Assembly (NCBI RefSeq): GCF_964204865.1
Contig: NC_135250.1
Span: 10,912,001 to 10,976,000, forward strand
From: Styela clava
Taxonomy: Eukaryota; Chordata; Ascidiacea; Stolidobranchia; Styelidae
Direction of reading: 5' to 3'
DNA: 64,000 nucleotides
The first letter of the stretch is position 1; each line of letters begins with the position of its first letter. The position numbers and the translations under genes are program-made. A model generated the notes under the pieces. That model worked only from the letters and a program-made list of their open reading frames with translations, made no database searches and had not been told where the DNA came from. Of this stretch, positions 25,064 to 62,781 are shown in pieces.

Positions 25064-26097
25064 ATGAAGTGGTTAAGCGTTCTTGAGGCCGTTAGCATAT
25101 TGGTCACAGTGTCAGATGCATTTCTATGTGGAGGGACATGTGAAGGACGTGTGACTCCATGTCCAGAGCCGAAGTGTGAAAAGGGGGTTGGGCTCGTGAA
25201 ACACGTTTGTGGGTGAGAATTATTTATTATCATTTTAAAACGCAAGTTTTTTCTTTCGATTAAATTTAGACAAATTCATTTTGTTGTACATAATATATTT
25301 TTTAGGTGGTATTTAGGTGTACGGACAGTGTTCGCCAGCGCCAGTGTCTGAAGACCTCTCAAGTATTTCGCATAAAACTAATATTGAATCACGAAAAGCA
25401 AGCATTTTGCAGCTCACAGTTTAAAATTCTGAGGTCTGATTCAACATAAATTCAGCTTTACAATTTTTTAACATCAACTGCGTTGTGATAGCTGTAGGAT
25501 CAAAATCAACCAAGCCTTCAGATTTATCCATCTGAAATATATACTTGTACAGATGCTGCGATGTTTGCTCAAAGCAGAAAGGTGAATCCTGTAATGGAAG
25601 ATGGGGGAGAGATGGAAAATGTGATCCGACAAAAAATTTGATTTGCGTTCCGAAAGAGCCAATTTGTCCCAAAGAAAACATCGATAAAGAACTTCCCAAA
25701 TATTTCTTTGGTGTGTGCATTCCAAAGCGCGACTATGTAAGTTCAATTTCTACTATCTATGCACTTTATCTCAAAGATATGCAGTTGAGTGAGTGAATTC
25801 ACTAGTGGTACATGACTGAGAACCTCCTTGTGGCATCTGAAGTCCTGCAATTGCATAACTATCAAAGAATGTGAATTTTTCTACAACCGTTTATGCTTCA
25901 CAAACTACTTTATCTTTTATTTATTTCATCATATCATACTCGAATTAGACGAAAAATAATTGTTAAATGAAATTAATTTTTGCATTGTAGCATTGTCAGA
26001 AAAACAGTAATTTCAATTTCAAACCACCTTTTTATTATTACAGAAAATTATTCGACAATACTGTAAAAACAACCGCACTCTTGTTTGTCCAGCATAA
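25064..26097 (+). CDS. secreted single IGFBP-domain protein (three exons, 128 aa)
   Basis: Exons 25064-25212, 25553-25736, 26044-26097 (387 nt) with donors GTGAGA and GTAAGT, both acceptors CAG-type. The signal peptide covers about residues 1-19. The cysteine pattern of the mature part matches an IGFBP N-terminal domain: about residues 22-49 hold five cysteines, then the hallmark CGCCDVC straddles the first splice junction (residues 49-55), followed by C63, C73 and C81. Four further cysteines lie in the C-terminal third. Length resembles single-domain IGFBP-like proteins of invertebrates, not the full vertebrate IGFBP with its thyroglobulin domain. Likely extracellular; binding of an insulin-like peptide is possible but unproven. 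AATAAA occurs about 250 nt downstream (near 26348). Confidence 0.88.
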
Positions 26098-29170: not shown

Positions 29171-32100
29171 ATGAATCAAATTTATGAGCTCGAAGGAAAC
29201 GAGACATATGAAACTGCAATTCGATATGAGAATCAACCAGGTCAGATTGTGAGAAGATTTTTTTTTATTAATATTGATGAGTATTACGTATACGTTGAAT
29301 TTTATCATTTTTTAGATCCACGGTCATTTTCTATCCAGACGAATAGGTTGAAAGATATTATCATTACTCAGGAGGTTAAAACAAAAAAGAAGGATAAAAC
29401 GAGCATTCATCATGTTGCTGTTGGTGTGGGATTTGTAATATTAATAGGATTGCTTGTTGCTATTATTGTACAAATGAACCTTCATATGCAGGTATTGTAC
29501 ATTGTTTTTGTACTTTCATGAAATATTTTTCATGAAAAATTATAGCTGAAGAAATTAAGGATCTGAAACAAATGAAATTTCATAAACAGATGAATAATAT
29601 GAATATATAAGAGAGTTTAAGAGTTTTAGTTAGACAAAATCTATAGACATATTCATTTTCAGAAAATAGAATAGACCTTATAATCATTCAAAACCCATCC
29701 ATCCTACGCGCAAAAATAAAAGTGGCATAAACCTAACAATTTTAACATTAGCTCTTATGGGGAATGTGATCACCAGGGCAGAAATTTGCATTTTTTATAA
29801 TTTTCTGGTTACCTTTCGTTGTAAACGTGGGCAGTTTTATATATAGAGTGATTTTAGATATTCTTCGAAATATTTATGACGATAAACATGGTCAAGTTTT
29901 TTGATAATCGTGCATTAAAATTGTAATAGACGTGGTTTTTACGCTGGCGTCTCCCTTCCTAGACCATGACATTCTGCCAACCTGTGAAATATTGGGCTAA
30001 CTGTGGCGCTAATGTCTCCTTCGGTACTGGAAGCGTTTAACATTGACGTTCTATAATCTAGATTCTATACCCGTTCACTTGCATTTGTTTACTGGTTTTA
30101 CGCATTTATTTCTGCTAGTAACCATTTACTTGAAGGCATGCTGACGTGTTATTTAAATTGCCGGTACCAATGGGATGAAAACTAAGTTCTACCTGGTATG
30201 TTAGCCAATAGGTATCTCAGGGTAAGTTGTATACAAACGAATATAAATATTCCCAGCCCATTACTCTATTACATTAATTCAGTAACGGTACAGCACCGGT
30301 ATCGTAATGTGATTCCTCAAATGATGAGTAGCGCGACAACTCTTAATTGAAACAGTATCCTAACTAGGTTAAAAAACATGTCAGCATGCCTTCAGAGAAA
30401 GGTCGCTTGCTGTATCGGTAGGATATGCGCAAAGCTAGTAAGGAAAAGTAAATTTGACTGAATACGTGAATGACTACCATTCCAGATAAACTTCACTAAC
30501 TAAAATTAGTATTTCATTAAACGCCAAGCACGGTATGTTTTGGTTCCGGTATTCTGTGATCACTTAATATGAAGCACGAGCAGTTGGAGCGCATATTTCA
30601 CAGACCACAACGTGTTGGCAGAATTTTTTGGTATAGTGAGAGAGACGCCAGCGGAAACACCACGCCCATTAAATTACCAATGAACGATTATCAAAAATTT
30701 CGACCATATTTATCATGATAAGAATATCAAAAAATCTTCCATCCTCAAAACTGCACACGTCTACAATGTTAAAAGAGCTAATGTTAAAATCGTTTTGTTT
30801 ATGCCACTTTTATTTTTCGCGCTTAGGATGGGTTTTGAATAAATACCGTCTATTAAATGCTATTATTGTAAAGGAATTCATTCACTTTCCTCTTTTTACC
30901 AAATCGACATCGATGATTTTTTTCCATCATTGAATTTGAATGTGGTGTCAAACCTACTGCCTCTTTTTTGATTGAAAGCTCAACAATGCACTCTGTGATT
31001 GCGAGATCCAGAACCAATATTTTGCATAATTCTCTCTTGCAAAATTGTAATGAAATCTCCCCAAGTCAAAACATTTTATACCCTTATCTTATGAATAAAT
31101 AATACACTACATATACTAAATTCACTGTAGTCGAAAATTTCTGCAACAACTGCAACAACAGCTTACGTGAGTTTTCCAAGATCTTGCCTCGAGTTGAGAA
31201 ACCAGGGAATAAAATCTGATGGAATTTATAAAATTAAACCAAGCGGACTCCGATCAGAAATACAGGTTGATATTATTATTCATGATGTATTTGAATATTC
31301 CAATTAAATTTGTTCTAAAAGTTCTAATTTTATCTTCAAGGCATTTTGCGATATGTCAACTGACGGTGGAGGATGGACTTTAGTTGCAAGTGTTCACGAG
31401 GATAATATTGAAACAAAATGTGGATCTGATGATTTCTGGTCAAGCTATGTTCCTGAAAATCAACAAGACCACGCAGGTGTAAGCAACTGGGAAAATGAAA
31501 ACGTTTATGGAGACATTAATAAATGTACAACCAGTGATTATAAAAACGTTGCCTATTTTTCGTTAAACGTAAGCCTGTTTTTATATTTTCATAATTACGA
31601 AAAAAAGAAAAGAAACAATCACCATAATTCTATTACACAGTTAATGAGTGAAGCGACTTTTTTTCTGTATTTATTTTTTGTCAACCAATGTATCATATAC
31701 ATCTATGTTCAATATTATCAGTCTTCAGACGTTATGACATGGCACACTCTAGCAGGTTCTCCAGTTTTGTATATGAAAGAAAATTCTACATCACGATACA
31801 GAACAAATAATAACTTCATGGAAAAATACGGTGGGAATCTCAAGATGTTGTTTGACAACCACTATCCATTGAAAATAACTAGTGGTGAGTAAAAAAATTT
31901 ATTGAATCACAAATGCTTTCCATCTTTCATGGTTCCAGAGACATTTTTCATACAACATAAAATGGTTCTGTATACAATTTGACATTACATTGTAGTTTTA
32001 CTGCTTTACTACTATAGAAAAAAGAACGGAAAAATTATTGAACGCTCTGGTGAATAAAGCAAATGAAATGAAAGCAAAAATTTCCAATTGGTATGAATAC

Positions 32101-35100
32101 TCAACCTTATACAAACATGATGAAATAGTGAGTTCAAAGCTGTATGGCCACTATGGAAATCGGGTAATATTTCAATTTCACAGATGTAATACTTATAAAC
32201 ACAGAAGACGCTTATTCTTCTTTCTCATTTTTCAAAATCCAAGTGTCGTTTTCAAAATACAGTAGGAACCAGCCCACGTTTTTGAAAAGTAATGATTATT
32301 ATCTTATTTGAAAAGTAATGATTACTATCTTATGTGAAAAATCATGATTACGGCCAAGTAAGTGTGGTTTGTAAAAGTTTCATCTATACAATCTATCCAC
32401 AAAAACTGTTCGGAAAGCCTTTATCTAATATTTCAATCAATCAGTCAACTATCTAAGATCTAAGTAAACTAATTCTTTACTCAATTTTATTTGCTATTTT
32501 TGTCTGTGTATTAATGGAGATTTCCTATTTAAAAACCTCTACACAGGTTATATTCCCGGTTCACAAGTTGTCAGTAAAAGTTCAAATTCAGTAGACTGAC
32601 AAACAATGTGGAAAGCATTTATGCGTCTTAAATATTGCGACGATTCTCCAAAATATTTAGATGCTGTATTACACGTTACAATACCTTGCTTGACAGAAAT
32701 ACGACATACAACTTTTGGGAAAACCGTCTACTAAAAACTACAAGATCACGAAGAAGTTATTGGACACGTAGTGGACAAAGCGATCGTTTTGTTGTTATGT
32801 TGTTCCTAGTCTTGTTCTTGTTGTTCTTTGACACGTATTGAAGAAATCGCTTTTCCCTTTGATTACTGGACCAATTTTCAGTTGTTAAACATAAAATTTT
32901 TCTCCAAAAGACTATTACTTTTTTTTCGTTATGATGTCATCAAAATTATGTGGCTTTACGTGTCCATATATTTGAGCATAGCTCTCTTGTATATATACAC
33001 TCACCAATCCGTGAATCTCCAGATTAGATTTCAATCAATAAATAAACTAATTTTCACACAATTTCTTTGCATTGCAATATTGTGCTCCAAAACAATCATA
33101 AACGTCGTTTTCGCTTTCCACAAAAGTTTTAAAGTTTCATGATTGCACAAATTGTGCGAACTTTTCTATACTATTACAAATAAATTTCCCTGTTTAAAGG
33201 ACAAATTGCACGCAGTGGAATTTGTACTAATCATGTTTAAAGAATTAATGGCACAATTCGATATAAATATATATTAATTCATTACGTTCAGATTACATTC
33301 GGAAGTAGTTATCAGGAATATTACGGCATTCCTTATCAGCAGAAAGTTCGGCAAGTATCAAGAATATAAATTATTTTTTCGTTCAGTTTATGTTTTTATC
33401 ATACATCATCTGAAATTCTTTGTTTTTATTATTTCAGATTCGTCCGCTCAAACACCTATTTAAACACAAGCAAGACTCAGCCTTTTATCATGGTGTCTGT
33501 GATATCAAACGAAGACAGGAAGAGCTCATACTACTTCACAAGAGTACTTCAAATTTAATATTTCTCGCGCTGATCTGCACTACCATGCTCAATAGTCATT
33601 ACCGTGTATGTGTGTTCTGTTAACAGGCGTACTCAAGTCAAGATAAAGTGACAGTAAAGAGTCAGCTGAAAAACACAATTTCGAGAGGAAATTTTGAAAT
33701 ACAATACAGCGCAGCGCAATTTGTACATCCTTCCGAGGCCACAGTTTGCGAATATCACTTCATTGTGTCTAATATCAGAGTAAGGAAGCAATTTTGATGA
33801 TCACAATCAATTATTTGCTCAATCAGCTAGATCTAGAGTTTATTTAGACAAAAAATATACAAAATCATTAGAATGTATGTTGTTTCTTACCTTTTTGACG
33901 AAAAAGTACTCGATTTAGTATTGTGATGTTGTGTTTTTGTTAATTAACAGGACTGGAAATCGTACAAACCGACATCTATAATCGATAATCATAATATGTA
34001 TCTATCTTCACGATCTATAAAATGTAATGCTGAGGGAAGCCCATCAAACATTGTAATGGGTTATCTAATGCTTACCAGGTAAGTATTGACATAGACACTT
34101 ATATATATATAAGTTATCATGAAATACTATATATAAACATCTGCAACGACCCGTTGTGCTATTCTGTACAAGGAATAATTCATATGCATGACAAGTAAAG
34201 TCATGAACAAGTTTAGGGTCTAAAATTTCCAACATGAAAAAATTGCATGTTCGTATTATAATAAAAAAATTTATTTGCCATTCCTTTTTTATATGGCACT
34301 TTGAGATGGCTGAATCGTACGTTACTTGGACTTCTTTGATTTTTGTATGAAAAATTCATTGTTTGATTAACACAAGTTGATTGAGTGTATTGATTCTTAA
34401 ACATACTGGTTTCGGATAATTTTTAATCGGTCCTCTCCACTGATGATAAATCCAAACTAAAAATGGTCCTCAACATTACTATGTTTAAAGTTCAAGGTTT
34501 TAATCACTGTAATCAGAATAAATTACTAATTTCTATCACATTCAAACAAACTGAAAACTGGATACATTAATATCTTTCTTAGTCCTTAGTAAGTGCAGGC
34601 ATATTTTTTGCATTTGTCCTAATTATTTATATTTTACATGTAGAAAAAATGGATTTAACTTTACAGTTGATCAACTAGATCATGTGACAGATGTAGTTTT
34701 GACGGCGGTTGAATCCGTGAAAGACTTATTCAAAGGTAAGCACGTATTATAAGTAAAATAATATTATTCCATATACATGTTGTGATCCATCCAAGACATA
34801 TTTTATACTCTGTCACATGCGGCTTTCCGTTTAGTACGCCTCCACACTAAATTCTAAAATTGAGTAGATCATAAAATTGACGATTCATGAGAAAAAAATC
34901 AAAAATTTGATGCGTCTTTATGAATTCCTCAATTTTTCATCAAGTAACTCTGATTATGTGACCATCATTATCTTTGCACCCATGTGCATATGCAACCAGT
35001 ACATATAATTTTGCACACACGGACATTTAATCCCAGCGAACGTTACAATTCTTGAACACCAAGAAGGTGCTACCTGGCCCGCCAAAATCTCCGCGCTGGG

Positions 35101-38100
35101 TAACTACCATCCATCGCCAGTTAAGCACTGGTACAAAGTTTCGCGTTACTGCAGAGTGATCCGGATCAACATTGATATATACTTACACTCGGTCATAACA
35201 TTCCCCAATCGCTATTTAACAAAAAATATTTCCCTCACAAAGTTGAACTCTATATGTTCCAAACAATTTAAAAGTTACAGGAAGTATAGCTATTCTGTTT
35301 TTTAAATTATCGGAGTCAGTGGGGCTTATGAATGTCTGACTCATTCAAAATTTTGATTGCGGTACCGGTACCTGACTTAATCCTAATTGTTTCCGGCTAC
35401 CGAATGCAGAAAACGGAAATTTGAAAAACTTTACCCTCGACTAGACTAATTGATTTTAGTTGGAGATTTCGACTTTAAACTACTATAAACTAGACTTGAA
35501 CAATAGACCTTATTCATATTTATTATTATGATAAACATGGTCAAGATTTTTAATAATCGTTCATTGAAATTTTAATGAGCGCGGCGTTTCCGATGACGTC
35601 ATTCTCACTAGACCATGAGATTCTGCCAACGCGCCGTGCTCTGTGGAATATGCGCCCCAACTGCTTGTGATAACAGAATACCGGTACCGGGACCACAACT
35701 GGCGTTCAACGAAAGACCTATTTTGGTTTTTATTGGATGTTATATATTTCATGAATTCCATGTAACTATGTACATTTCTGGTACACATTTCAAAATCCAA
35801 TGGCCTAACTCAGTTCATATGTTGACACCATGTACCTATCTCAAAATTGGTGATGTTCAGGGCTGGATTTAGACCATGAGAGGCCCCTTCATATTTTTGA
35901 GCTCATAATTTCTCTCTAAACAACATCACATTTAATTGCTTAAAATTTGAAAATATGAAAGAATTTAACTTTTCATTCTCCCCATTCATGGGTGTGAATT
36001 TTTAATTAAAAGAATAAAAGTTTACTTGAGGCAGTTTTGCTTTCAATTTCTTTGATCAAACAACCGCTACAGCCATAACATAGAAACTTCCAGCAGAATG
36101 CACATATTAATAATTTCCCCTATTATGATGCAAACGACGCAATAACGCTGTTTACAATGTGGTTGAAACCAGTTGTGTACAGAATTTTCTACTCTGAAAA
36201 GCTTGATATATATATATATATACTTTTCGTAGGGTTTGAACTTGTCAAGTTTTCAAAAGAATTACAATTTTCGAAACCGAATTTCGAGGCTCTAGGTTTC
36301 AGCCTGCCTAGCCTATTAGTAAATCCAGCCCTGGTGATGGTCCCTACAGCAAATTGCTTGCCCCAATCACTCACTCACTCAATATAAATTAACTGTCGTA
36401 CTTGCTAAGTGTCCACTAAGTGAAAATCTAGTGTACAAAAAAAAAAGCAGTGGTTTAATAATGGACTACATTTTTAACCGAATCCAAAAATATTCCGTAA
36501 CTCAGTCAACCCTTCCTCCAAGGAGTTTTTGTTAAATTGTTCAAACATCTTAATTAACTGTTAATCTTGATATCGAACATGGGGGGCAGGGGGTGAGCTG
36601 ACTGTGATGGTCGTATCGCTTCCCAGTCTATACCGAATAACTGTGTGTTTTGTAGTCTATATAATTTTTATTGATTCAATGGTTGTATTCTGGTTGACAA
36701 AATAACTCTGCCTCTCGTATTCAGTCATAATAGGTTGGAGATATTCATCTTTTTTGTATACCGGTACCGTACAACTTATCCTGCCTATTGGCATGATGGC
36801 CAACATTTTTGTTCGTAGGCCTATTTCAGTATTTACTAAATAATTTAGTTTTCACCTCTTGCAGCCTTGGTACGGTACCGGTAGTTTAAATAACACGTCA
36901 GCATGCCTTCAGTAAATGATTGCTAGCTGTACAGGTATAAATGCGTAAAACCAGTAAACAAACGTGATAGAAACGGTATGGGTTATAGATTGTCAATGTT
37001 AAACGCTCCCAGTATCGGTACCGTACCCAAAGCGACATTAGCGCCGCATTTGCAGCGCATATCCCACAGAGCACGGCGCGTTGGCAGAATCTCATGGTCT
37101 AGTACGAATGACGTCATCGGAAACACCGCGCTCATTAAAATTTTAATGAACGATTATTAAAAATCTTGACCATGTTTATCATGATAAAAATATCAAAAAA
37201 AATGTAAAAAATATTCTGTCCTCAAAACTGCTCACGTATACTATGAAAGATATCTAGAAAGTTACAAAAAATGCAAATTTCTGCTCTGGTGATCACATTC
37301 CCCATGAGAGCTAATGTTAAAAAAAAATTTTTTACATCCCTTTCTTTTTTGCGCGTAGAATGGGTTTTTAATGAATAAGGTCTATTCAAAAAGTTGAATC
37401 CCAATTACGGAAGTTTGAAAATACTACTCCGACACCCGAGCACCAACCCGTAGCCTACAGTAAAACGCAATTACTTCCACAGATGTACACAGGATGATAA
37501 ATGGCTAACTTGTATTATTTAAGTAGTTGTTTATAAAATTTATTGCCTTCTTCCTAGTTTCGATATTTTCTAATTTTCAATAATTGGCAGAATTCCCAGG
37601 AAACGATGCTTCAATATCACCAGTTACATTTGACAAAGGAAGCACTGACTTGATTTTTAACATGACTCCACCTAGTATGCGTCCATATGTCGAACCTGGA
37701 TATCTGCAGTTGAGAGCATACAATTTGTCAGGATACCCGAATGCAATCTGCCCAGGAATCAAGTAAGATTTCAAGAACACTGTGTTTGTTATTATCCTCC
37801 TGTTTTATTTGGTAAGAACAACAGACAGGTTGTCGTACAGTTCATGATTTGCGTGTCCGGAAAATTCGGCGCAGGAAATTTCGCTACAGGGGATCTCGCC
37901 GCAAGAAATTTCGCCGCATAGGAAAAATCGCCACAAGAGCATTTCGCTGTAAAACAAGTATTTGTGATAAAAACAGTTAGATTTGTAGGGTTAGGGTATG
38001 CTCTTAAATAACGAATATTTTTAAAATTAGGCGATTTTTCCTATGCGGCGAGATTTTATACGGCGAAATTTCCCGCGGCGAATTTTCGTTGAACCCATAT

Positions 38101-38849
38101 TTTGTATCCTACTATAAGATGTTTTTTTAATAACTTTTAACTTAATGCATCACTTTATTTTGTTTTATATTATAGAAAACGTTGCAAAATTATGCACTGT
38201 TTTTGCTATAGCGAGTAATTTTCTAAATACAAGACATCGTTTTAGTTAGATAAAGTAGATTTTTAAAGTTAATGTGAGTAATTACAAGATGTAAATGAAA
38301 CCTAGTTTTAACTATATTTTTTGAATGTTCGTGATATGTCTAGAGTGACATCTGTTTCACCGGAACACGTTTGCATTGGAGGAATTTCTGCAGATGTCAG
38401 AGAACGTGGAACTTGTGGAGATTTTGCTGGTGGGAAATCATCCGAATTTTTTTTAAACGTATAATCTGTGTGTCTGAATAAATCAACGTCAAGCCCATAC
38501 TAGGTTACCGACTCATTAAATATTATATAGATTTACTGATGAAGCAGACCTAAATAGTTTTTCACCCCGAATAGAAACTACTACCTGGGTAATAGAGTAA
38601 ACTTTTCTATACCTCTTCTATTAAAAGAGGGTCAGGTCAGTAGTTTTAAGTGAAGCAATTTCAATGTAAAAATGCACAGCGATCAAACTTTATGCGACAT
38701 GATTCAAATATAATTCGTTTAATAGCAGTATTTATAATTTTATAGGTTGGTCTGGAAAATCTGATGACAATATTTTACATTCTCGACCAAATGGATATGC
38801 TCATTCAAAGAAGGATATTTCTTCCGTCATTCTCATATTTTATCGCTGA
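29171..38849 (+). CDS. intelectin A: type II membrane intelectin with inserted 228-aa segment (14 exons, 605 aa)
   Basis: Exons: 29171-29240, 29316-29491, 31131-31265, 31341-31568, 31722-31884, 32018-32163, 33292-33350, 33438-33543, 33627-33779, 33951-34078, 34644-34735, 37591-37762, 38344-38429, 38746-38849; 1818 nt in one frame. Residues 1-56: cytoplasmic-type tail with tyrosines and a basic KTKKKDK; 57-75: membrane segment. Exons 3-5 and 12-14 form an intelectin domain: RSCLELRNQGI, FCDM-type start, GGGWTLVASVHED, RYRTNNNF, SPVTFDKG, HVCIGG, CGDFAG, WSGK and final LIFYR, in the order of vertebrate intelectins. Exons 6-11 (residues 258-485) insert an unrecognised segment between KITSG and FPGND; both bounding introns are phase 1. 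Exon 7 uses a GC donor (GCAAGT) and exon 8 a weak GTACTT. Family role: calcium-dependent binding of microbial glycans; here probably at the cell surface. Confidence 0.85.
29671..30854. mobile_element. long foldback element F, copy 1
   Basis: The left end ATAGACCTTATAATCATTC and right end GAATAAATACCGTCTATT are inverse, and the arms continue for about 500 bp (for example AAGGCATGCTGACGTG at about 30133 against CATGTCAGCATGCCTTCAG at about 30378; ATGGTCAAG with TAATCGTGCATTAAA against the inverse near 30690-30715). It lies in intron 2 of intelectin A. Family F recurs at 35502-37386. No coding frame; superfamily not determined. Confidence 0.75.
32752..32999. repeat. dispersed repeat family R, partial copy in intelectin A intron 6
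   Basis: TTGGACACGTAGTGGACAAA, a GTTGTTATGTTGTTCCTAG segment and TATTTGAGCATAGCTCTCTTG match the copy at 13123-14112 with divergence. Confidence 0.65.
34220..34470. repeat. diverged copy of the 42-45 kb duplicated repeat
   Basis: Blocks TCCAACATGAAAAAATTG, TGGCACTTTGAGATGGCTGA, TTGATTAACAC and GATTCTTAAACAT correspond in order to 42045-42255, so a relative of that repeat sits in intron 10 of intelectin A. Confidence 0.5.
35502..37386. mobile_element. long foldback element F, copy 2, with a nested hAT
   Basis: AATAGACCTTATTCAT at the left is inverse to ATGAATAAGGTCTATT at the right. The left arm (about 35502-35650, with GACCATGAGATTCTGCCAAC) is the inverse of about 37057-37240. The right half, read in reverse, also matches the left half of the copy at 29671-30854 over several hundred bp. 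KpnI/AgeI-like CGGTACCGGTA words recur inside. A hAT element (35858-36333) inserted later. It fills most of intron 11 of intelectin A. Confidence 0.75.
35858..36333. mobile_element. short hAT MITE (476 bp) nested in foldback element
   Basis: Ends CAGGGCTGGATTTA and TAAATCCAGCCCTG are exact inverses over 14 bp. Flanks GTGATGTT (35850-35857) and GTGATGGT (36334-36341) match at seven of eight positions, consistent with a hAT duplication carrying one mutation. No coding capacity. Contains a TA microsatellite near 36208. Confidence 0.88.
37858..38088. repeat. foldback MITE with GGCGAAATTTC arms
   Basis: The left arm contains AATTTCGCCGCATAGGAAAA and the right arm GGCGATTTTTCCTATGCGGC, with further GGCGAA blocks out to both ends. 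It lies in intron 12 of intelectin A; target duplication not clear. Confidence 0.8.
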
Positions 38850-46535: not shown

Positions 46536-49500
46536 ATGAATTATACGAAAGTAGGGCTCACTATAGTTGCTATTCTGGACGTAGTTGTTGTTTTAGTGTT
46601 GTATTATACTACGTTAACAACGGTCAGTGTGTATGATTATACAAAGGATACAAAAGTGGAATTCGATTCATTATATTTTTCAAATGTAACGGAGGAAAAT
46701 CATTCTATTGAACCTAATAATTTATTTAAGACCTCAAAGTTTCTGGGAGATATTAGCAGAAATGCTACAGTTTCAACGCATTCAACACTTCCAATTCCAA
46801 AACAAAAATATGTATTGGACCAATTTATTGGAAACACGAACTATTCTATCATTGGATATAACGGATCAAGAGTATACAATACAAGTAAACACAACAATAA
46901 TACAGGAAAATTTTGCATGGAAAAACCACCTCGTCTAGTTGGAAAAATGGCTATTCCAAATAACATTCTCCCTCCATCGTGGGAGGAAATTCGGAAGCAA
47001 AATTTGAATATACACGGCGGAAGTTATATGCCTGAAAACTGTAAAGCGAGATATAAAATCGCTATAATAATAGCCTTACGAGGCAGAGAGGACCAATTGA
47101 AAATTCTCCTCTATCATTTGCATCCGATTTTACAAAGACAGCAAGTCGATTATACTATATACACTATCACTATGGCCGGAAAAGGCGTTTTCAACAGAGC
47201 TAAACTTATGAATGTGGGATTCGCGGAGGCAAATAGAGGTAAACTATTTTCAGTTTTGCTCTGGGTGAAGATTTACTAAAAAGCATTTAACTTATGACAA
47301 AGTACATCATAATGGTAATGGTCATTTTGTTAATACGCTTTGCCTGTGGTTTTTGGGTACATGTGTTTTCAACGATAAGACCGAAACAACCACAACATTT
47401 GCTGGTAGATAATATATATATATGGTAGGCTGTTACAAATTAGCAATATATACCGGTAGATATCGGGTTTTCAAATTCCGTAACATCGCCAAGAGCATTT
47501 TGCGAATGTGTGGAAAGAACCAGAAAATGTTACATAAATTGACATGCTATGTTCTTTGCCAGTGTTCATTTGGTCAGTAATTCTCGTTTTTTATTAAGAC
47601 CGAAAATACGATTGCTATATATTCCATGACGTGGATTTACTATTGGAAGACGATAATTGTTTATATTGGTGTTCGAAAGAGCCAAGAGAACTCGCTCCCT
47701 ACATGGATAAATTTGGGTATAAACCCTTGTCTTACTCACTCGGTTGCCGTTCAAGTAATGGTGAGTAGCATAGCTTTTCAGCATAAACTTTAATTATAGG
47801 GATATTCTGCTTAAGAAGAGGTAATTACCAAAAATTACCAGTTCATATTATTGTTCTATTTTATTGTGTCTATACAATAATAATTTAGAGATTAATCTTA
47901 TTCACGGCATTGGTTGACCCGATACTGATTTTTGGAATTTTAATCGCGAGTTCCAGTTTAAATCAGTAGTTTGAAAATCTAGAAAATAAGTGGTAATATA
48001 TTTGTGGTTGTTTTTGGCACATTTTGAGCTTTTTTAAAGTACCGAATACCGAATTCTTTTTACCGAATTGTTTAATATTTCAAATTCAAGATATGGTAAA
48101 CGCGCATAGTCTGAAGTTACTAATCTAATAAATCCAGTCCATTTTTCGTTTTTTTTTAATCTTTCATATATAACATAAAACGAATCAAGCTTTTGTGAGA
48201 TAGCCATGGTCCTTCAGACGGTATTGTCATTTTAAAGTTAGCTCTGTCTATTCCGGGCAAATGCATGAATATTTCTTGTCTTTTTGGACAGGACCTATGT
48301 GTACCTATCGATCGTTTTATCATTAGTATCTTGTTGTTGGTATGTCGTGAAAAATCACTTTTCTCTTTACTAGACCAATTGCTTTAAAATTTTCAGTCGA
48401 TAAATTGTTTGCTGTATGATTCTGTTCATTATTTTTGTCGCTACAAGGCTATTACTTTTATCTATTTTAAAAAAATCTGTGGATTCTATGGGATTCGTTT
48501 TTCGTGTGTCATCATCAAAATCAAAAATTGCGCACCTTGTGGTAATTCTGCGTTCTCGTTCTTTGTGATTTGGTTGTCAGTCCAAGTCGGGAAGAATACG
48601 GTACCGTACGTGTCATGTCTATATATTTAAGCATTACTTCCGTGTTTCTTTTGTTTTGATTTTATCGTGCCTATTTCCCTGGCAAACAATTTAATTTGAT
48701 CTACCTATAGTATCGACAAAATTACCGTCACTTTCAGAAGAAAACGCACATGAGTTGTACTGTAGGATGTTGTGTAAAACCCTCCGGAGTTTATGGGGAT
48801 TAATTCCATTCATTGACGTCTAAAAATTACAATGATCCCTTTTTGCCCAATTATAGTTGTCATTCCGGGATAGGAGATACCTTCATAGGTGCCATTTCAA
48901 AATATTTACTCATTTAAAACAATATATTGCAATTTAGACTAACGATCATTTTAGAAAAATTGTCTCCATAAACTAATAGATTTCTAGAGCACTGATACAT
49001 ACAACTGTGAAAGCGATTGAATTTCTGTATTAGAGTAATTTTGAAGCCGTTTGTTTCATTCCAGCGCCACGGATAAACAAGTACTTTGGCGGAGTCGTTC
49101 AGGTTTCGCACGAACTTTTCCTTGAAGTGAATGGTTTTTCTAACATATTTTGGGGTTGGGGAGGTGAGGATGATGATATGTATTCAAGATTGTGGAGTAA
49201 AGGTAAGGACGTGGACTCAGTTTTATTTCATTTTAGTGTATTTTGAATGGATTTGCAAAACTTGAAAAATATTTGGATCTGAGAAAAATATCTGAAACTA
49301 TGAGAATAAGTCAAAAGTCGAAATGATCCCATACATACAAGATGCAATACAAGTAGGATACTGCAAAAAAATAACTTTTATATAGCTAACTCAATATACA
49401 TATACAGCCAATGTACTATGCATATATGTGGTAACTAATTATCTTATCCCAGGATGATTGGCAAGAGTTCGATAAACTCGTGAACCGACTGTGACTCGTA

Positions 49501-55659: not shown

Positions 55660-58600
55660 ATGAATGAAGCGTACGAGCTTGAATACAACGACACATATGA
55701 AACTGCAATCCGTTACGAGAATCAACGAGGTAAGACCCCATTAAATTTTATTTGTTCTTTTAGGCAAGATTGTAAGTTTGACCTTCAAACGTCGGTTTCT
55801 GGTTTCAACCTATGCAGGCTACATGTGAGTTCACAAAACGCACGACAGGGCCAAATATTGCACGACAATGTTTAGTTGTTCAGTTTAATGAGGGATTGTT
55901 ATTGCGCAGAGTTTCCGAATATGATTGACATGTTCTCATTTTACGATATCATCAAAACAAATTAACCAACATGAATAGCTTGATTGATAATAACACATTT
56001 GTGTGGCTTCTGTTTAGAGCGAAATTATTGTTCTTAGCATTTCGGAAATTCGTATAATACTTAGAGGGTTCAAGCTTACACCGTGGGATTTTTCAGGTCC
56101 AGTGAGAGCGAGACCTATTCAGACAAGTTCTATAGATCCCCAAAAAGAAATTCCTGTTAAAACTGAAAACAAAAACGTGAAAACTACCAACCTCTATGTC
56201 TCTGTTTGTATTGGATTTGCACTGCTGGCCGGAATGCTTATTGTTGTCATCGTACAGCAAAATAAACATTACCAGGTATTGCACATTATATTTTGCATAT
56301 ATATATCATATCACGTTGCCAATTGCAATTAACCTTGTGTCTGTGAATCATTTCCTCCTATTATGAAAGAAAATATCACTCAACCAATTGAAGTATTGTA
56401 TAATATTATACATCAACCCGATTTTAAACTTATGTAAAACATTTTATATTTTCACAACATTTATTCTAATTCAATCCAGGAAAGCGGTCTTAAAACTACT
56501 ACTACTGTTCAGCAAACAACAGCTCCTAGCAGCAGATTTGCTAGATCTTGTCTTGACTTAAAAAACCAAGGAATCCAAGTAGATGGAATTTTCACAATCA
56601 AACCGGATAACAATTCAGAAATACAGGTTGAAATTGTTCACGAAATTTGTTTTTGATTAGTCGAAATGGTTGAAATTAAATTGTGATTAAGGTATACTTT
56701 TCTCGAATACAATAGCCTTATTTTGCAGGCATATTGCGATATGTCAACTGACGGTGGAGGATGGACTTTAGTAGCAAGTGTTCACGAGGATGATATTGAA
56801 ACAAAATGTGGATCTGATGATTTCTGGTCAAGCTATGTTCCTGAAAACCAACAAGCTCACGCAGGTGTGAGCAACTGGGAAAATGAAAACGTTTTTGGGG
56901 AGATAAATAAATGTACAAGCAGTGATTATAAAAACTCGGCTTACTTTTCGCTTAATGTAAGTTTATTTTTCATAAAACGAGGTCCACACTATATGATACA
57001 CTATATAGATATTTCATATATTGAATTAGATTCACAATAACCTCTAGTGGGCGTGGCGTAACAATTTTCGACGTCATAGTTACGTAATAAGGTCCGCCAA
57101 AATATACTCGTCCAAAACGCTCAAACGTTCACCCGAAATCGAGCAAGCTCTCGTTACATCGTCGCAACGTGATCGTAGCGATTGGTTAGTCATTAGTCAG
57201 GGTCACCAACCTTTTCGAGGCCGAGGGCTACTTTTTGGGTGCAGATTGAGCTGCGGGCTACCAGTTCAATGTACACTTCTGAAAAAGTCAGTTGCCCGAT
57301 TAAGCTTCAATTATTGGTATAATTACTGGTATTTAGTGAAGTAGAGACACTAATAAGCTTTAGGATTCTTCAGGGAATCAAACGATTATCACAACGTAGC
57401 AGATACATTTTTATCAATGACGCTTGCATTTCTAAACTGAGTGTTTTCAAATTGATTTTCAACACTCTGCGCAAGTTTAAGATGAAATGTACTTAACAGT
57501 TATACTATCAAATGTTGCAGAGTATCATACTCCGACGTGTAACTTGACACTGTAACTCTGAGCAAGTCTTGCAGATTTTCATCAGTGAGACGTGTTCCGT
57601 GTTTGTTCCTGGTGGAATGAGTCGCGGCGCTGTGGCCCATCGTGTAAAGCGATAGGTTCGCAGGTTAGAATTCCATGCGGGGATAGTTATGTACTAAAGG
57701 ATTGTTGGACTCCTCGACGCCGTAGGGTGGTTCACATAACCGCTGGCCGATTACGGCTTCATTCGCCATCAAGTCCATGCATCCGCAAACAAATAACTAA
57801 CTAATCTCATACCCGACATGGACTGGTAACTGGGCGAGAGGCCGTGGTCGTCATATGGTTGAGTCGTCTTATCGGCTATCTTCTCCCCCGGGATAAATAT
57901 GTAAATCTTCTCCTATCCTGAGTTTATGTCAAAAATGTTGATTCACAAAGATAGGTTGAACCAAACGATGGTCTCGTAAAATAGGATTGCTGTATGATTT
58001 GAATCGCGAGCTTTTTCTGCCCGTACTGCGCTGTCCAGTGGATAGATTGCGTGACAAGATGTGAAATATCTCTTCGCTTTGCCGTCGCTACGATCGCTCC
58101 AGTAATGAGACACACGCAGGCTTTTTTCATGGTGGTAAAAATGATTTCATTGTGAAAATGATGAGTTTTTCATCGCTTTTCTGCCATTTTACTTTGGAAT
58201 CAATAATTGTATTATTGCTGCTCCACAAACCAACGGACAAGAAAAAGTGCGGGTTCGTGGAAAGTGATATCGGTGTGATGTCATAATTGGAAGAGCGTAA
58301 ATTGACCCGTCACATTACTGAGGTCAAACAAAAATAAGGTTGATGGTTACAAATATTAATATAGTGTCATTTCCAGTTCCCATATGTGATTTATACTAAA
58401 ATAGCAGGACAAAATTTAATTGATCTAGCTTACTTATAAGAGCCGTTATTAAGCTTAGTTTGGAACAGACCGGCGGGCGACTCATATGATCTTCGCGGGC
58501 GACTTGGTGCCCGCGGGCAACGCGTTGGTGACCCCTGCATTAGTGAGTTCGTTATCGCTGGCGCAGATGCCACTTTGGACGATCTGGCTGTACTTTGGCA

Positions 58601-61600
58601 GGATATATGACGCAGAAAACGTTGCGTACCGATAGAGCATTTTAGCCTATTTTATCACAGCTATTTCTAGACAATTTTTGATTACTGCCATTAAACTACA
58701 ACTCCTAAGAAGGCAAGAGGATGATTGACTTATTTGATTCATACTCAAATTTCGGAATCTTGACCGAAAACTAACGAATAGCATTCAAAATCGCGAAAGC
58801 TAGGTATTGTTTGAAACCACAACCAAAAATTTGTCCGAGTGACAAAAGTGCCTGAGCGGATGCTTAAGGGTTCATTGTTACGTCACTTTTTGCATCTTGC
58901 TGATTGGCCAATGTCACGAAATGAACAAGGTAGTCGATGCTCAGTGAAACATCCCTTGGAAAACAATTCGCCATTTTTTCGTGTTATTGCGGGCCTTAGC
59001 GCATCATCCTCTGCCGTTTTTGGCTGCCGGTGAAAACTGAAACAACAATAAAAGTGGTCACCGGTAAAGCCATAATTTGTATATACAGAAGTAATATGTT
59101 AATAATCATACATATAGCTTATTTCTGAACAACAGTATGCAGGTAAACAATATCTGGATGATATTCTTAGGCTTCGGACGTTATGATGTGGCAAACTCTG
59201 GAAGGATCGTCCGTTGCGCATATGAAAGAAAATTCCACTTTAAGATACAGAACAAACAATAAGTTCATGACAAACTACGGAGGAAATCTAAAATATCTAT
59301 ATGAAAATCATTTACCATTGAAAATTACTTCAGGTGGGGAAAATATATTCATTACACAGGTTTTATTAATTACAATTTTTAATTATAACTTGAGAGCGTA
59401 AGTGGAATGACTTATATTTTGCAGATCAATTTTCTGTTTCACTTTTTATATACAATCTAAATAAATAGACATTATGATACTTTAGAAAAGAGAACAGCAA
59501 AATTGCTAGATGCTTTGGTGAATAAAGCTGATGAAATGAAGTCGAAAATTCCTGATTGGTATGAATACACGTACTCCAACACGTACCAAATATCAAACTC
59601 AATGCTGTACAACTCATATGGAAATCTGGTGATATTATATTCACTGCATTCTACAATCGGTTTATAAATCGTTTGTAAAATAATAATACTTCATTGAACT
59701 TCTTAGTCATTTTAAATAGTCTGGGTATTCGAATATATTTGAGTGCTATATGTAGTGTGAATATTTTTTAACAATACAAAACAGCTCAAATGGGAACAAT
59801 AATTAAATCTGGAATTTGTGTAAATTGTCCAGGTGATTCAAATAGTAAACCTTATATGTCATAAAACTGAATTTGGACAAAGAGTTTAACAAACGAGAAC
59901 CTATCGAAGACTTCAAAATTCCAAACTGATAGATATCTACTGAAATGACTTGTGGCTTTTTACCGATAACACATAAAAAAATCGTGTGCTCCAATGGGTC
60001 GAATACAAACTCAATAAAAAAAAAGGCCAATGTTTCAAATCGGTAGCAATAATAGCATAACATTTTTAGTGGCATGAAATAAAAATTGGGACACATTATT
60101 GATAAAACATATAAGAAAATTACAGAAAGGTATGGAAATATTTAGGGTAAGGACGTATTTATATCTTGGCAAACATATTGTTTCCTAATTATCGGTAAAC
60201 TCAAAACAAAACAAAAAAGTTTCCTCAGTAGCTAATGTTTTTATGGGCAGCACAATCTGTAACTGCGTGGACATTTTTGATAGTGAAATAAAACTCGTTT
60301 CATTTCTTTTCTAAATTAGTGCAGCAAACTCTTTAGGCAAGATCAATATTTTATTTTCATAGATAACATTCGCAAGTTCGTACAGATCACAAGGCAACCT
60401 GTTTTATCAAAAGAAATATCGGTAAGTGTCAAACGCTAAGTTAAAGTTACATTTATTTTACAAAAAGTGAACCTGTAAATCGTTTTACTAAATGGTTGTT
60501 GTTCGCTTTTCTTTGCAGCTAATGGGCCTATCGATTTCAACTTGAAGTATCGAAAAAAAGTTAAAGCTGCTAAAAGATTATTACCTTTGCTTTATTGACC
60601 CTACATTTCATCCTAACTATTATGTTTTAATTTATGAAAACGCTCTTCATAAAATAGGGGTACATGCTTTCGTCACGCTTGTCTACTAATCTCTCTATCA
60701 ATAAGCTCATTTAAGTATAAACACCTATATATGTATTATTCGCTGATTATTTGGTTTCTGCGAGACTAACTACTTATGCTTCTTCTATGCTTTTGTGCCG
60801 GTGGATCCGTATGCATATATTGCAGGGATGCTGCAGCAAGAGTAGAAATAACAATCCTATAAGTGATTCAAGAGTCTTGCTGCAGACTAACACAACAATA
60901 TTTCTGTAACGTTTCGTTTGACCAATGTCAGACTTCTTCAGACATACATAGTTCAACTCTAACATGAAAAGCAGTTACATGTATCTTTGGACAATCAGTG
61001 TAAAATTATTTAACATGCGTGACTCCCATAATTTTACACTCATTGTTCAAATATGCATGTAACTGCTTTTCATGTTAGAGTTGAACTATGTATGTCTGAG
61101 GAAGTCTGACCTTGGTCAGAATACTATTACAGATACAGATATTACAGAATACAGATTACTATCGGGCGGAATTTTTTGGACATCAGTATAGTATAGTATT
61201 GAACAATTTGTACACGTCTTTGTTTACTAAAAATAAGTGAACGGCAAAAAGTGGAGATCAAGTTTATCGAACTACCGAAACATCAATTGATATTTCTATG
61301 ACGGAATATATTTTATGTGCAATGTTATACGAAAACAAATATATGGTTCGCTATACTGTACAGTGTACACTATCTTTACCAAAGAAAAATACTTACTAGC
61401 GCTTATTCTTGTTCACAAGCCGCGGACGTGTATTTATTTTATTCCAGTTCAAAATTGTTCTGATCATCACATTCATGTGCAAATCTGTTTATATAAATAA
61501 TTGCAAAAAGAAAGACCCACCTCTATATTTTGGTACGCCTCGTAAATATGTTAAACTGTTAACTGACCGTATTCCTTGTTCAGAGTGAAATATATTTCTC

Positions 61601-62781
61601 CTGAATACGTGTGCATTGGAGGAGTATCTGGAGATGTCAGAAATTATGGTACTTGTGGAGATTTTGCTGGTAAGAAAGTCATGCTTGAGTATATTTCAAT
61701 GTATTGCGTGATCTTTTGAATTCAAATTGGATGATGAAAAATTACCTTTAAATCTAACTGGGCAAAGTTGAATATTGGACACGAAGTCGACCTATGATTG
61801 GCTTCGGAAAATGTTCCTTCTGTTGGGTTTGATTTTTTTGGGGGGGAATATCGATCAACTACGAACTCAGTCGCTAGGCTATTACTTACTATCTCAATCA
61901 TCATTTATTTATCTCAAATTAATTCGATGAATTTTATGGACCCAATATTTCACCCTAAATCTATTTTGCTTTGCGTATATTACGCCACCACTGCGCTATG
62001 CCCGCGATCCGCATTTGTCAAAATTTGTAGAATTTAAGCAGACGAATGCAATATAATGCATGCTGACAAACAAAAATATTGGATTGAAAAATAAAGACAG
62101 TTACTTAAGCAATTTCGTCGTCAAAGCTAACAAGAGAGCAATTTTTTCACAATAACAACAAGAAGAACAACAAAAATACAAAGGAGAATATTAACAACAA
62201 GAACAATTTAACAAAACGAATCGTCTGTCCACTTTGCTTCCAATGATTGCTGATGCGTTTTAACCTCGGATGCAAAATTAAATCGGTACATCTTGAAATA
62301 CAGCTTATTTCACTGGACACGATATATAAAGTGTAGCTATGGATTGTTTTTCTGAATTCTCATTGTTATTGTGAAAATACTCTTATTCTCAATTAATGGA
62401 GCGATCGATCTCAAATAAACGATAGTCACTGTTCCTTTGTGTTCATATATTTGACCACTGCTCTCCCTTTTTAACCATATTTTCTCAAACTTCAATACAG
62501 AAATTGAATAGAAATATATTGTTAATGAGGCAAAAAACCGATGCGCCAAACTGGAAAGACCAAGCTTATTTCGCAACTTTGTGGCTACGCCTGGCGGCTG
62601 TTTATGCAGGGATGGGTTAGTTTTCTTGTTCGGTAAAAAAATAACATTTAAAGTTTGAAATAAACTATTTTTTGTAGGTTGGTCTGGGAAATCCGGTGAC
62701 ACGATTCAGCCATCGATACCATATGGATATGCACATTCCAGAAAAGATATATCCTCTGTTATCCTGATATTTTATCGCTGA
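55660..62781 (+). CDS. intelectin B: paralogue lacking five exons of A (392 aa if exon 7 joins exon 13)
   Basis: Exons: 55660-55729, 56097-56275, 56480-56626, 56729-56956, 59171-59333, 59486-59628, 60363-60421, then 61584-61669 and 62678-62781, numbered 1-7, 13, 14 after A. Phases equal A's throughout. Residues 1-24 repeat A's tail (YELE, TYETAIRYENQ); membrane segment about 55-77. Exons 3-5 encode the N-terminal half of the intelectin domain (RSCLDLKNQGI, GGGWTLVASVHED, RYRTNNKF); the last two encode YVCIGG, CGDFAG and LIFYR. Exons 6-7 match the start of A's inserted segment, but no match to A exons 8-12 is visible in 60422-61583, so the middle of the lectin domain is missing. Exon 7 (phase 2) still joins exon 13 in frame. 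It may encode an altered lectin or be an early pseudogene. A hAT element fills intron 4. Confidence 0.75.
57198..58537. mobile_element. hAT transposon (1340 bp) in intelectin B intron 4
   Basis: Ends CAGGGTCACCAACC and GTTGGTGACCCCTG are inverse with a one-base difference. CATTAGT lies immediately on both sides (57191-57197, 58538-58544), a 7-bp duplication, probably an original 8 bp with one change. GGGCTAC and GCGGGC words repeat near the ends. No transposase; a SINE-like segment is nested inside. Confidence 0.87.
57610..57940 (+). mobile_element. possible tRNA-derived SINE nested in the hAT element
   Basis: TGGCCCATCGTG (about 57630) resembles an A box and GGTTAGAATTCC (about 57663) a B box, spaced as in tRNA genes; a tRNA-unrelated body follows with higher GC than the flanks. 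No clear poly-A tail or flanking duplication seen, so this is tentative. Confidence 0.35.
60920..61117. repeat. palindrome with 90-bp arms
   Basis: Left arm 60920-61009 and right arm 61028-61117 are close inverses (GACCAATGTCAGACTTCTTC against GAAGTCTGACCTTGGTC) around an 18-bp loop. GACCAATGTCAGACTTCTTC with CGTTTCGT just outside resembles sequences common at retroelement termini, but the parent family is not determined. It lies where intelectin B lacks exons found in A. Confidence 0.85.
62105..62245 (-). repeat. dispersed repeat family R, inverted fragment
   Basis: Read on the minus strand it contains AAAGTGGACAGACGATTCG, a GTTCTTGTTGTTAATATT segment and GCTCTCTTGTTAGC, the landmarks of family R. 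It is in the last intron of intelectin B. Confidence 0.55.

What the first reader, a model, noticed from the sequence alone, without database searches (positions are those of the whole stretch)
32018..34735. A 228-residue unknown segment inserted in an intelectin lectin domain, bounded by phase-1 introns
In intelectin A, exons 6-11 encode 228 residues between KITSG and FPGND, where vertebrate intelectins run straight through (the loop before the PVVYDFG strand). Seen directly: all six exons are open, total 684 nt (divisible by three), and both the intron before exon 6 and the intron after exon 11 are phase 1, each splitting a G|AA codon. Such symmetric cassettes are the signature of exon shuffling and also allow skipping without loss of frame, leaving a normal 377-aa intelectin. 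The segment starts with an amphipathic helix-like stretch (RTEKLLNALVNKANEMKAK) and continues as mixed beta-like sequence; I recognise no family.
Basis: partly seen in the sequence, partly recalled or inferred. Interest (0 to 1): 0.9.

Follow-up and report, generated by a model that had tools for sequence, protein, structure and literature searches.

The report
Bacterial-type domain inserted in sea-squirt lectins
A sea-squirt-like animal carries a large family of intelectin immune lectins with an extra, unnamed protein domain spliced into the middle, a domain related to parts of bacterial and phage proteins, and the members compared have changed many of the residues that ordinary intelectins use to grip microbial sugars.

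Summary
Exons 6-11 (32018-34735) are open, total 684 nt and add 228 residues to an intelectin between two phase-1 introns. It is no one-gene oddity: of 34 loci in this genome with intelectin front and back parts, 28 show insert exons between them and six compact ones do not (lower bounds, some copies broken). Three of eight modelled genes carry two inserts in tandem. Insert codons are under purifying selection. The domain also occurs in two loci without intelectin hits. Profile comparison ties the inserts, full length, to an unnamed domain of bacterial multi-domain proteins and phage proteins (E 2e-13; 1.6e-9 without the bridging member; shuffles 0.08 or worse); the window insert alone is not significant. 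A bacterial member is predicted as a helix-capped beta-sandwich. The six insert-bearing genes aligned keep 2-4 of 8 sugar-site residues of human intelectin-1; two insert-less ones keep 5-6. Best reading: a shuffled 1-1 extracellular module, constantly included, that reshaped or took over ligand recognition. Structure and origin are well supported; function is inferred.

The parts
29171..29240 (+). intelectin A exon 1: start codon and N-terminal tail (MNQIYELEGNETYETAIRYENQ...)
   Evidence: gene model; the tail/TM exons match only copies A and B in the genome
29316..29491 (+). exon 2: hydrophobic stretch VAVGVGFVILIGLLVAIIVQ, a likely type II transmembrane segment
   Evidence: sequence shows it; no TM program was run
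31131..31265 (+). exon 3: start of the intelectin domain (SCLELRNQGIKSDGIY)
31341..31568 (+). exon 4: fibrinogen-like core of the intelectin
31722..31884 (+). exon 5, ending phase 1 (..KITS G|)
32018..32163 (+). insert exon 6 (region aligned with the N-terminal helix of the bacterial domain)
33292..33350 (+). insert exon 7; GC donor
33438..33543 (+). insert exon 8
33627..33779 (+). insert exon 9
33951..34078 (+). insert exon 10
34644..34735 (+). insert exon 11 (region aligned with the C-terminal helix), ending phase 1
37591..37762 (+). exon 12: intelectin continues (EFPGNDASISPVTFDKG)
38344..38429 (+). exon 13: part of the glycan/Ca site region (EHVCIGG)
38746..38849 (+). exon 14: end of intelectin (ILIFYR, stop)
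55660..62781 (+). copy B: exons 1-6 and 13-14 recognisable; insert exons 7-11 and exon 12 not found; probably a broken copy

Best explanation
The 228 residues are one folded extracellular domain, an N-terminal helix, a beta-sandwich and a C-terminal helix, of a so far unnamed family that also occurs in bacterial multi-domain proteins and phage proteins. It was placed by exon shuffling, as a phase 1-1 module, into the loop before the intelectin strand PVVYDFG in an ancestor of this gene family. It is a constant part of the protein, not an optional cassette. Shown: coding status, recurrence of exon phases, tandem duplication, presence outside intelectins, profile-level homology to the bacterial family. 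Inferred: in these lectins the inserted domain is an additional or replacing ligand-recognition surface. In the members compared the Ca-dependent diol site of the intelectin core has lost half or more of its contact residues, so binding has moved to, or is shaped by, the inserted domain. In copy A the lectin is displayed on the cell surface by a type II transmembrane segment, with a 56-residue inner tail that holds three tyrosines, as a surface recognition receptor.
For: Model and phases. 28 loci with front part, insert and back part in order on one strand: 27 in the tally, plus C1:27332100-27339200, where a model with the insert scores 991 against 675 without. Tandem double inserts in 3 of 8 genes: a second insert adds 438-456 to the score in those three and -113 to +52 in the other five (models). 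dN/dS of the insert 0.22-0.42 in six pairs and of the first tandem copy 0.23-0.31 in three pairs. Homology: 11 inserts vs bacterial/phage profile probability 98, E 2.1e-13. Without the motif-bearing member E 1.6e-9 over positions 4-224; window A with three paralogue inserts E 3.9e-7; 12 column shuffles best E 0.082, reversed 0.54. The insert of the C17:9.02 intelectin, first row of the query, itself confirms bacterial loci by tblastn down to E 8e-14, an E-value relative to the candidate stretches only. Predicted structure of a bacterial member pLDDT 92.3, pTM 0.91. Site residues: A keeps 4 of 8, five other insert-bearing genes 2 of 8, two insert-less genes 5 and 6 of 8 (site list from PMC8324875, passages).
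Against: No transcript evidence. The window insert alone gives hhalign E 0.036 to the bacterial profile, so its membership rests on its paralogues. The motif DGGNDMYDGGN of the bacterial family is not kept in it. No ligand of any member of the domain family is known from any call. The intelectin back part is the most constrained region, so the core is still important. The tail and TM exons match only A and B, so a membrane anchor is not shown for the other paralogues. All 16 bacterial records are metagenome-assembled genomes by their titles.
Confidence: 0.6

Rival explanations
1. The insert is a spacer or oligomerisation module. Its two terminal helices lift the sandwich off the lectin and set the geometry of multimers; the ligand is still bound by the altered intelectin site.
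For: N- and C-terminal helices flank the sandwich (predicted for a bacterial member). The C part is the most constrained region (dN/dS 0.06-0.18 against 0.22-0.42 for the insert in the same six pairs), so the core is still under strong selection. W288 is kept in all ten rows aligned, and E262, H263 and Y297 in A.
Against: Six of eight site residues differ in five of the six insert-bearing genes aligned. The domain occurs in other protein settings, including a phage protein that holds little else.
Confidence: 0.25
2. The cassette is alternatively spliced: skipping exons 6-11 makes a plain intelectin and inclusion a two-domain form.
For: 684 nt is divisible by three and both flanking introns are phase 1, so skipping keeps the frame.
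Against: Six exons would have to be skipped together. Plain intelectins exist as separate genes, and the three read have no intron at the site. Symmetric phase is expected of any shuffled 1-1 module. No RNA was available, so this is not tested.
Confidence: 0.1
3. Exons 6-11 are a separate gene nested in an intron, wrongly joined to the intelectin.
For: None found; only the absence of RNA leaves it open.
Against: In-frame phase 1 junctions on both sides recur in the paralogue models, and insert and flanks lie together in order in 28 of the 34 loci with both flanks.
Confidence: 0.03
4. The domain is an H-type lectin domain or another named sandwich lectin that has diverged.
For: Beta-rich sequence beside a lectin; my first impression on reading it.
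Against: No H_lectin match among the Pfam hits of 11 inserts and none in the whole genome.
Confidence: 0.04

Closest known systems
Intelectins (human intelectin-1, Xenopus XEEL, lamprey serum lectin)
   Same: Flanking regions align end to end with solved intelectins (E 1.2e-46 to 2.9e-51 for A without insert); E262, H263, W288 and Y297 are kept in A.
   Different: A 228-aa domain stands in the loop before the PVVYDFG strand. N243, E244, N260 and E274 are changed in A; of the five other insert-bearing genes aligned, H263 is changed in four and Y297 in five. A probable type II membrane anchor and tail are present in A.
Unnamed DGGNDM domain of bacterial proteins (L066-L081) and phage proteins (L082-L097)
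   Same: Full-length profile match; the first and last parts of the insert align with the two helices of the predicted bacterial structure.
   Different: The window's clade has lost the DGGNDMYDGGN and GADG motifs. It sits inside a lectin, whereas the four bacterial carriers examined are chains with Ig-like or other repeats and the phage one examined is a 296-aa protein.
N-terminal beta-sandwich of GH65, GH94 and GH116 glycoside enzymes
   Different: 2-14% identity in the rows listed and no catalytic domain; Foldseek gives no E below 1e-3. A shared general fold at most.

Membership tests
Intelectin | Fibrinogen-like start plus the intelectin-specific remainder aligning end to end with solved intelectins | tested here: met
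   PF00147 1.4e-8; 282-aa core without insert vs 4wmq_A positions 29-306, E 1.2e-46
Intelectin | Eight glycan contact residues (243, 244, 260, 262, 263, 274, 288, 297 of human intelectin-1) | tested here: not met
   A keeps 4 of 8; five other insert-bearing genes keep 2 of 8; two insert-less genes 5 and 6 of 8. The family name is kept on overall homology; diol binding is not claimed. Known intelectins also vary at these sites (PMC8324875, PMC12800186, passages); XEEL keeps 6 of 8.
Intelectin | Secreted, disulfide-linked multimer | not tested
   A has a hydrophobic stretch after a 56-residue tail, which argues for a membrane anchor; oligomer state not testable here
DGGNDM domain (unnamed; bacteria, phages, this genome) | Full-length profile similarity | tested here: met
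   11 inserts vs 17 rows (14 of 16 bacterial loci, 3 of 16 viral) E 2.1e-13; 10 inserts without the motif-bearing member E 1.6e-9; window insert alone E 0.036, not significant
DGGNDM domain (unnamed; bacteria, phages, this genome) | Motif D-G-G-x-D-M-x-D-x-G-N, invariant in 17 of 17 bacterial/phage rows aligned | tested here: not met
   Invariant in A4. The window insert reads VSSKLYGHYGN there. Kept in the insert-bearing intelectins at C17:9.02, C17:10.94 and C8:15.57; altered at C17:11.30. A loss inside the clade, so a derived member.
DGGNDM domain (unnamed; bacteria, phages, this genome) | Helix - beta-sandwich - helix fold | tested here: inconclusive
   Predicted for one bacterial member; spliced tunicate sequence not folded
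Class 1-1 exon-shuffled module | Same phase at both ends, tandem duplication at that phase, other protein settings | tested here: met
   Phases, |1| junction between tandem copies, two loci without intelectin hits (outer phases there not determined)
H-type lectin (PF09458) | Pfam profile match | tested here: not met
   Not among the hits of 11 inserts; no match in the genome
Galactose-mutarotase-like supersandwich (label recalled) | Structural match well above unrelated rows | tested here: inconclusive

The most novel reading that the evidence does not exclude
A tunicate took an adhesin-type domain shared with bacteria and phages, shuffled it into an intelectin, and let it replace the lectin's own microbial-sugar site. 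The result is a family of about 28 loci for immune lectins with one or two such domains, in which recognition is carried by a microbe-derived module grafted onto a retired intelectin scaffold.
Probability: 0.25. Interest if true: 0.88.

Novelty: new variant of a known kind. Interest (0 to 1): 0.72.

Why it matters
Intelectins are described as a conserved chordate answer to microbial glycans, with one Ca-dependent diol site in intelectin-1. Here a chordate genome shows a branch, larger than the ordinary one, in which a whole domain is inserted into the lectin and, in the members compared, that site is altered. It gives a direct test of how a lectin changes its target by domain insertion. It also points to an unannotated extracellular domain whose bacterial members can be expressed and studied at once.

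Tried and rejected
H-type lectin reading of the insert: no Pfam support and no such domain in the genome. Sequence searches of the PDB with the insert and with profiles: nothing below E 0.8. Weak Pfam hits were not followed: BetaGal_dom2 E 0.01 and RNA_binding E 0.11 for the window insert are below their cut-offs; HSDR_N_2 (3 of 11 rows, best E 0.0025), STATa_Ig (1 row, 0.0023) and four more in single rows are not shared by the family. PHROGs: nothing below E 0.046 for two tunicate sequences and nothing up to 0.01 for four phage proteins. The phage collection gave no tblastn match with one tunicate copy. Structure: no Foldseek match at E 0.001 in PDB; folds not listed there are not excluded.

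Horizontal transfer as the origin: not decided. Eukaryote genomes other than this one were not at hand, so I could not see how widely animals or protists carry the domain. I recall similar DGGNDMYDGGN motifs in other eukaryotes, but no call shows it. The tree has the tunicate copies as one group (98/96) and does not resolve whether the two intelectin insert clades share one insertion (one group in 12% of bootstrap trees).

A third insert copy per gene: scores rise by 6-90 in the three double-insert genes and by 27 in C8:15.07, through implausible extra exons, as does a second copy in C8:15.07 (+52); taken as noise.

Papers: searches (8 of 10 allowed). In the listings shown (for only the top 10-15 of 13-288 papers) no title or abstract start describes a domain inserted in an intelectin, and the four motif strings were found in 0 papers. 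Passages only were read in PMC8324875, PMC12800186, PMC8185196, PMC9953650 and PMC10433773. The library lacks most subscription papers, so wider absence in print is not claimed.
Full report
What is there. The window lies at C1:10912001-10976000 of a 376.6 Mb genome. It is very probably a tunicate: a glycoside hydrolase family 6 match, which among animals I recall only from tunicates, is present (one match, E 1.5e-6, over the cut-off). Intelectin A is a 14-exon gene at 29171-38849 on the + strand, 605 aa. One donor (exon 7) is GC. The flanks are a true intelectin: without the insert they align with human intelectin-1, XEEL and lamprey serum lectin. Upstream there is a 56-residue tail with three tyrosines and a 20-residue hydrophobic stretch, which looks like a type II membrane anchor; no predictor was run. 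These exons match only copies A and B in the genome.

It is a family, not a single oddity. Searching the genome with the insert, the back part, the front part and a divergent insert gave 41 clustered loci: 27 with front, insert and back in order, 7 with front and back only, 1 with insert and back, 1 with back only, 3 front fragments and 2 with the insert domain alone. The searches are capped, so these are lower bounds. The 27 include broken or weak cases: copy B, one C1:27.31 locus and one C8:15.11 locus each rest on a single insert-exon hit (E 8.3 for the C1:27.31 one), and in-frame stops lie in C17:8.57 (exon 4b) and in an insert exon at C1:27.39. One of the 7, C1:27332192, does carry a diverged insert (model score 991 with it, 675 without). 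That leaves 28 of 34 with an insert and six compact ones without a hit: three on C2, two on C5, one on C16. The three C2 genes read through the insertion site within one exon. The C5 and C16 genes were not read at that site.

Modularity. With my own spliced aligner (script; models) the insert exons recur, typically 143-150, 47-65, 100-106, 153-156, 128-131 and 92 nt, with phases 1-0-2-0-0-2-1. Departures: C17:8.63 (exons 6 and 7 modelled as 165 and 40), C1:27.37 (exon 6 in two pieces), C3:21.81 (last exon 104), and C8:15.07, which fits the pattern poorly in the middle. Eight genes were scored with 0, 1, 2 and 3 inserts: a second insert adds 438-456 in three (C14:16.70, C17:8.58, C17:8.57) and -113 to +52 in the other five. 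The two copies are joined by a phase-1 intron. Two other C14 loci show the same junction in partial sequence. First and second copies form separate clades across C14 and C17 (100/100 each), so the internal duplication is older than those gene copies. In the distant C17:9.02 gene exons 8 and 9 are fused.

Selection. Nei-Gojobori dN/dS of the insert is 0.22-0.42 in six paralogue pairs of C14/C17; of the first tandem copy 0.23-0.31 in three pairs; of the back part 0.06-0.18 and of the front part 0.17-0.31 in the same six pairs. The three pairs with A are saturated (dS about 2 or undefined), giving 0.25 and 0.28 where a value exists. The insert is therefore translated and useful, but evolves faster than the back part.

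What the domain is. No Pfam family, PHROG or PDB sequence matches significantly. More conserved relatives in this genome carry YISDGGNDMYDGGN or close forms: four copies in two loci without intelectin hits, C3:11.19-11.20 Mb and C2:26.63-26.64 Mb. Between the C3 copies lie three stretches that I read as Ig-like; Pfam gives V-set at E 0.017, below cut-off, for one of the three. Scans with four such sequences, led by the C17:9.02 intelectin insert, gave 16 bacterial loci (Flavobacteriales and other Bacteroidota, Verrucomicrobia, Zixibacteria, Neomarinimicrobiota; all metagenome-assembled genomes by title; best E 8e-14 against the candidate stretches) and 16 viral contigs. Four of the 16 bacterial carriers were scanned: long proteins with Ig-like repeats (L066, L075, L078), an ALK/LTK glycine-rich domain (L066), SprB repeats and a type IX secretion tail over the cut-off (L080; below it in L078). 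One of the 16 viral neighbourhoods was looked at (L082): a 296-aa protein of this kind next to a gene that I read as a family B DNA polymerase (label recalled).

Strength of the link. The 11 inserts against 17 rows (14 of the 16 bacterial loci, 3 of the 16 viral): probability 98, E 2.1e-13. Removing the one insert that keeps the motif: probability 96.3, E 1.6e-9, aligned 4-224 to 2-209; bacterial rows only 1.3e-6; phage rows only 2.3e-4 (probability 44). Window A with three paralogue inserts: 3.9e-7. Window insert alone: 0.036, not significant. Twelve column shuffles: best 0.082; reversed: 0.54. The 11 inserts against the four-sequence motif-keeping set: E 2.7e-51, but C17:9.02 is in both sets.

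The lectin site. The eight human intelectin-1 contact residues named in PMC8324875 (passages) were mapped by alignment, taking the last residue of the chain as 313. A keeps E262, H263, W288 and Y297 and has changed N243, E244, N260 and E274. The five other insert-bearing genes aligned keep 2 of 8. Two insert-less C2 genes keep 5 and 6, and XEEL keeps 6. So in the genes sampled the loss of the site goes with the insert. I aligned 6 of 28 insert-bearing and 2 of 6 insert-less loci, and did not correct for shared descent. The residue at 274 depends on gap placement in A, which has a glutamate close by.

How it most likely works. The insert is a built-in second domain of an extracellular lectin. 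Because the ordinary site is altered in the insert-bearing genes compared, and because the domain's other carriers look like surface or virion-associated proteins (inference from their domains), I favour a recognition role for it, with copy A on the cell surface. That step is inference. The main rival is a spacer or assembly role.

Evolution. The motif is intact in inserts at C17:9.02, C17:10.94 and C8:15.57, altered at C17:11.30, and lost in the clade of ten rows that holds A (100/100). The tree does not settle whether the two clades come from one insertion.

Limits. One genome, no RNA, no other animals. The locus tally uses typed coordinates and a simple ordering rule. Exon 7 is weakly conserved, and its borders in C17:8.63 and C1:27.37 are uncertain.

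Noticed in passing
window 55660-62781: Second intelectin (copy B) in tandem with A: exons 1-6 and 13-14 are recognisable, insert exons 7-11 and exon 12 are not found; probably broken.
   Followed up: partly
window 46536-47761 and beyond: Gene for a type II protein with CKARYKIAIIIALRGREDQLKILLYHLHPILQ and a DVDLLLEDDNCLYWC stretch; reads like a beta-1,4-galactosyltransferase (label recalled, no search run).
   Followed up: no
window 25064-26097: Small multi-exon cysteine-rich gene, probably secreted, starting MKWLSVLEAVSILVTVSDAFLCGGTCEG; not searched.
   Followed up: no
window 35520-35664 and 37046-37190: 145-nt inverted repeat, 93% complementary, inside the intron between exons 11 and 12; looks like a transposable element of the MITE kind (label recalled).
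   Followed up: no
   Followed up: no
L047, C17:8576049-8575958: In-frame stop in exon 4b of an otherwise open two-insert intelectin gene: allele, assembly error or young pseudogene.
   Followed up: no
L082-L097: Viral contigs carry a protein of about 284-330 aa of this domain family; the two tested have no PHROGs match up to E 0.01.
   Followed up: partly
L064 (C3:11191500-11200500): Locus without intelectin hits with two copies of the domain and three stretches between them that read like Ig domains (V-set E 0.017 for one); full architecture not worked out.
   Followed up: partly
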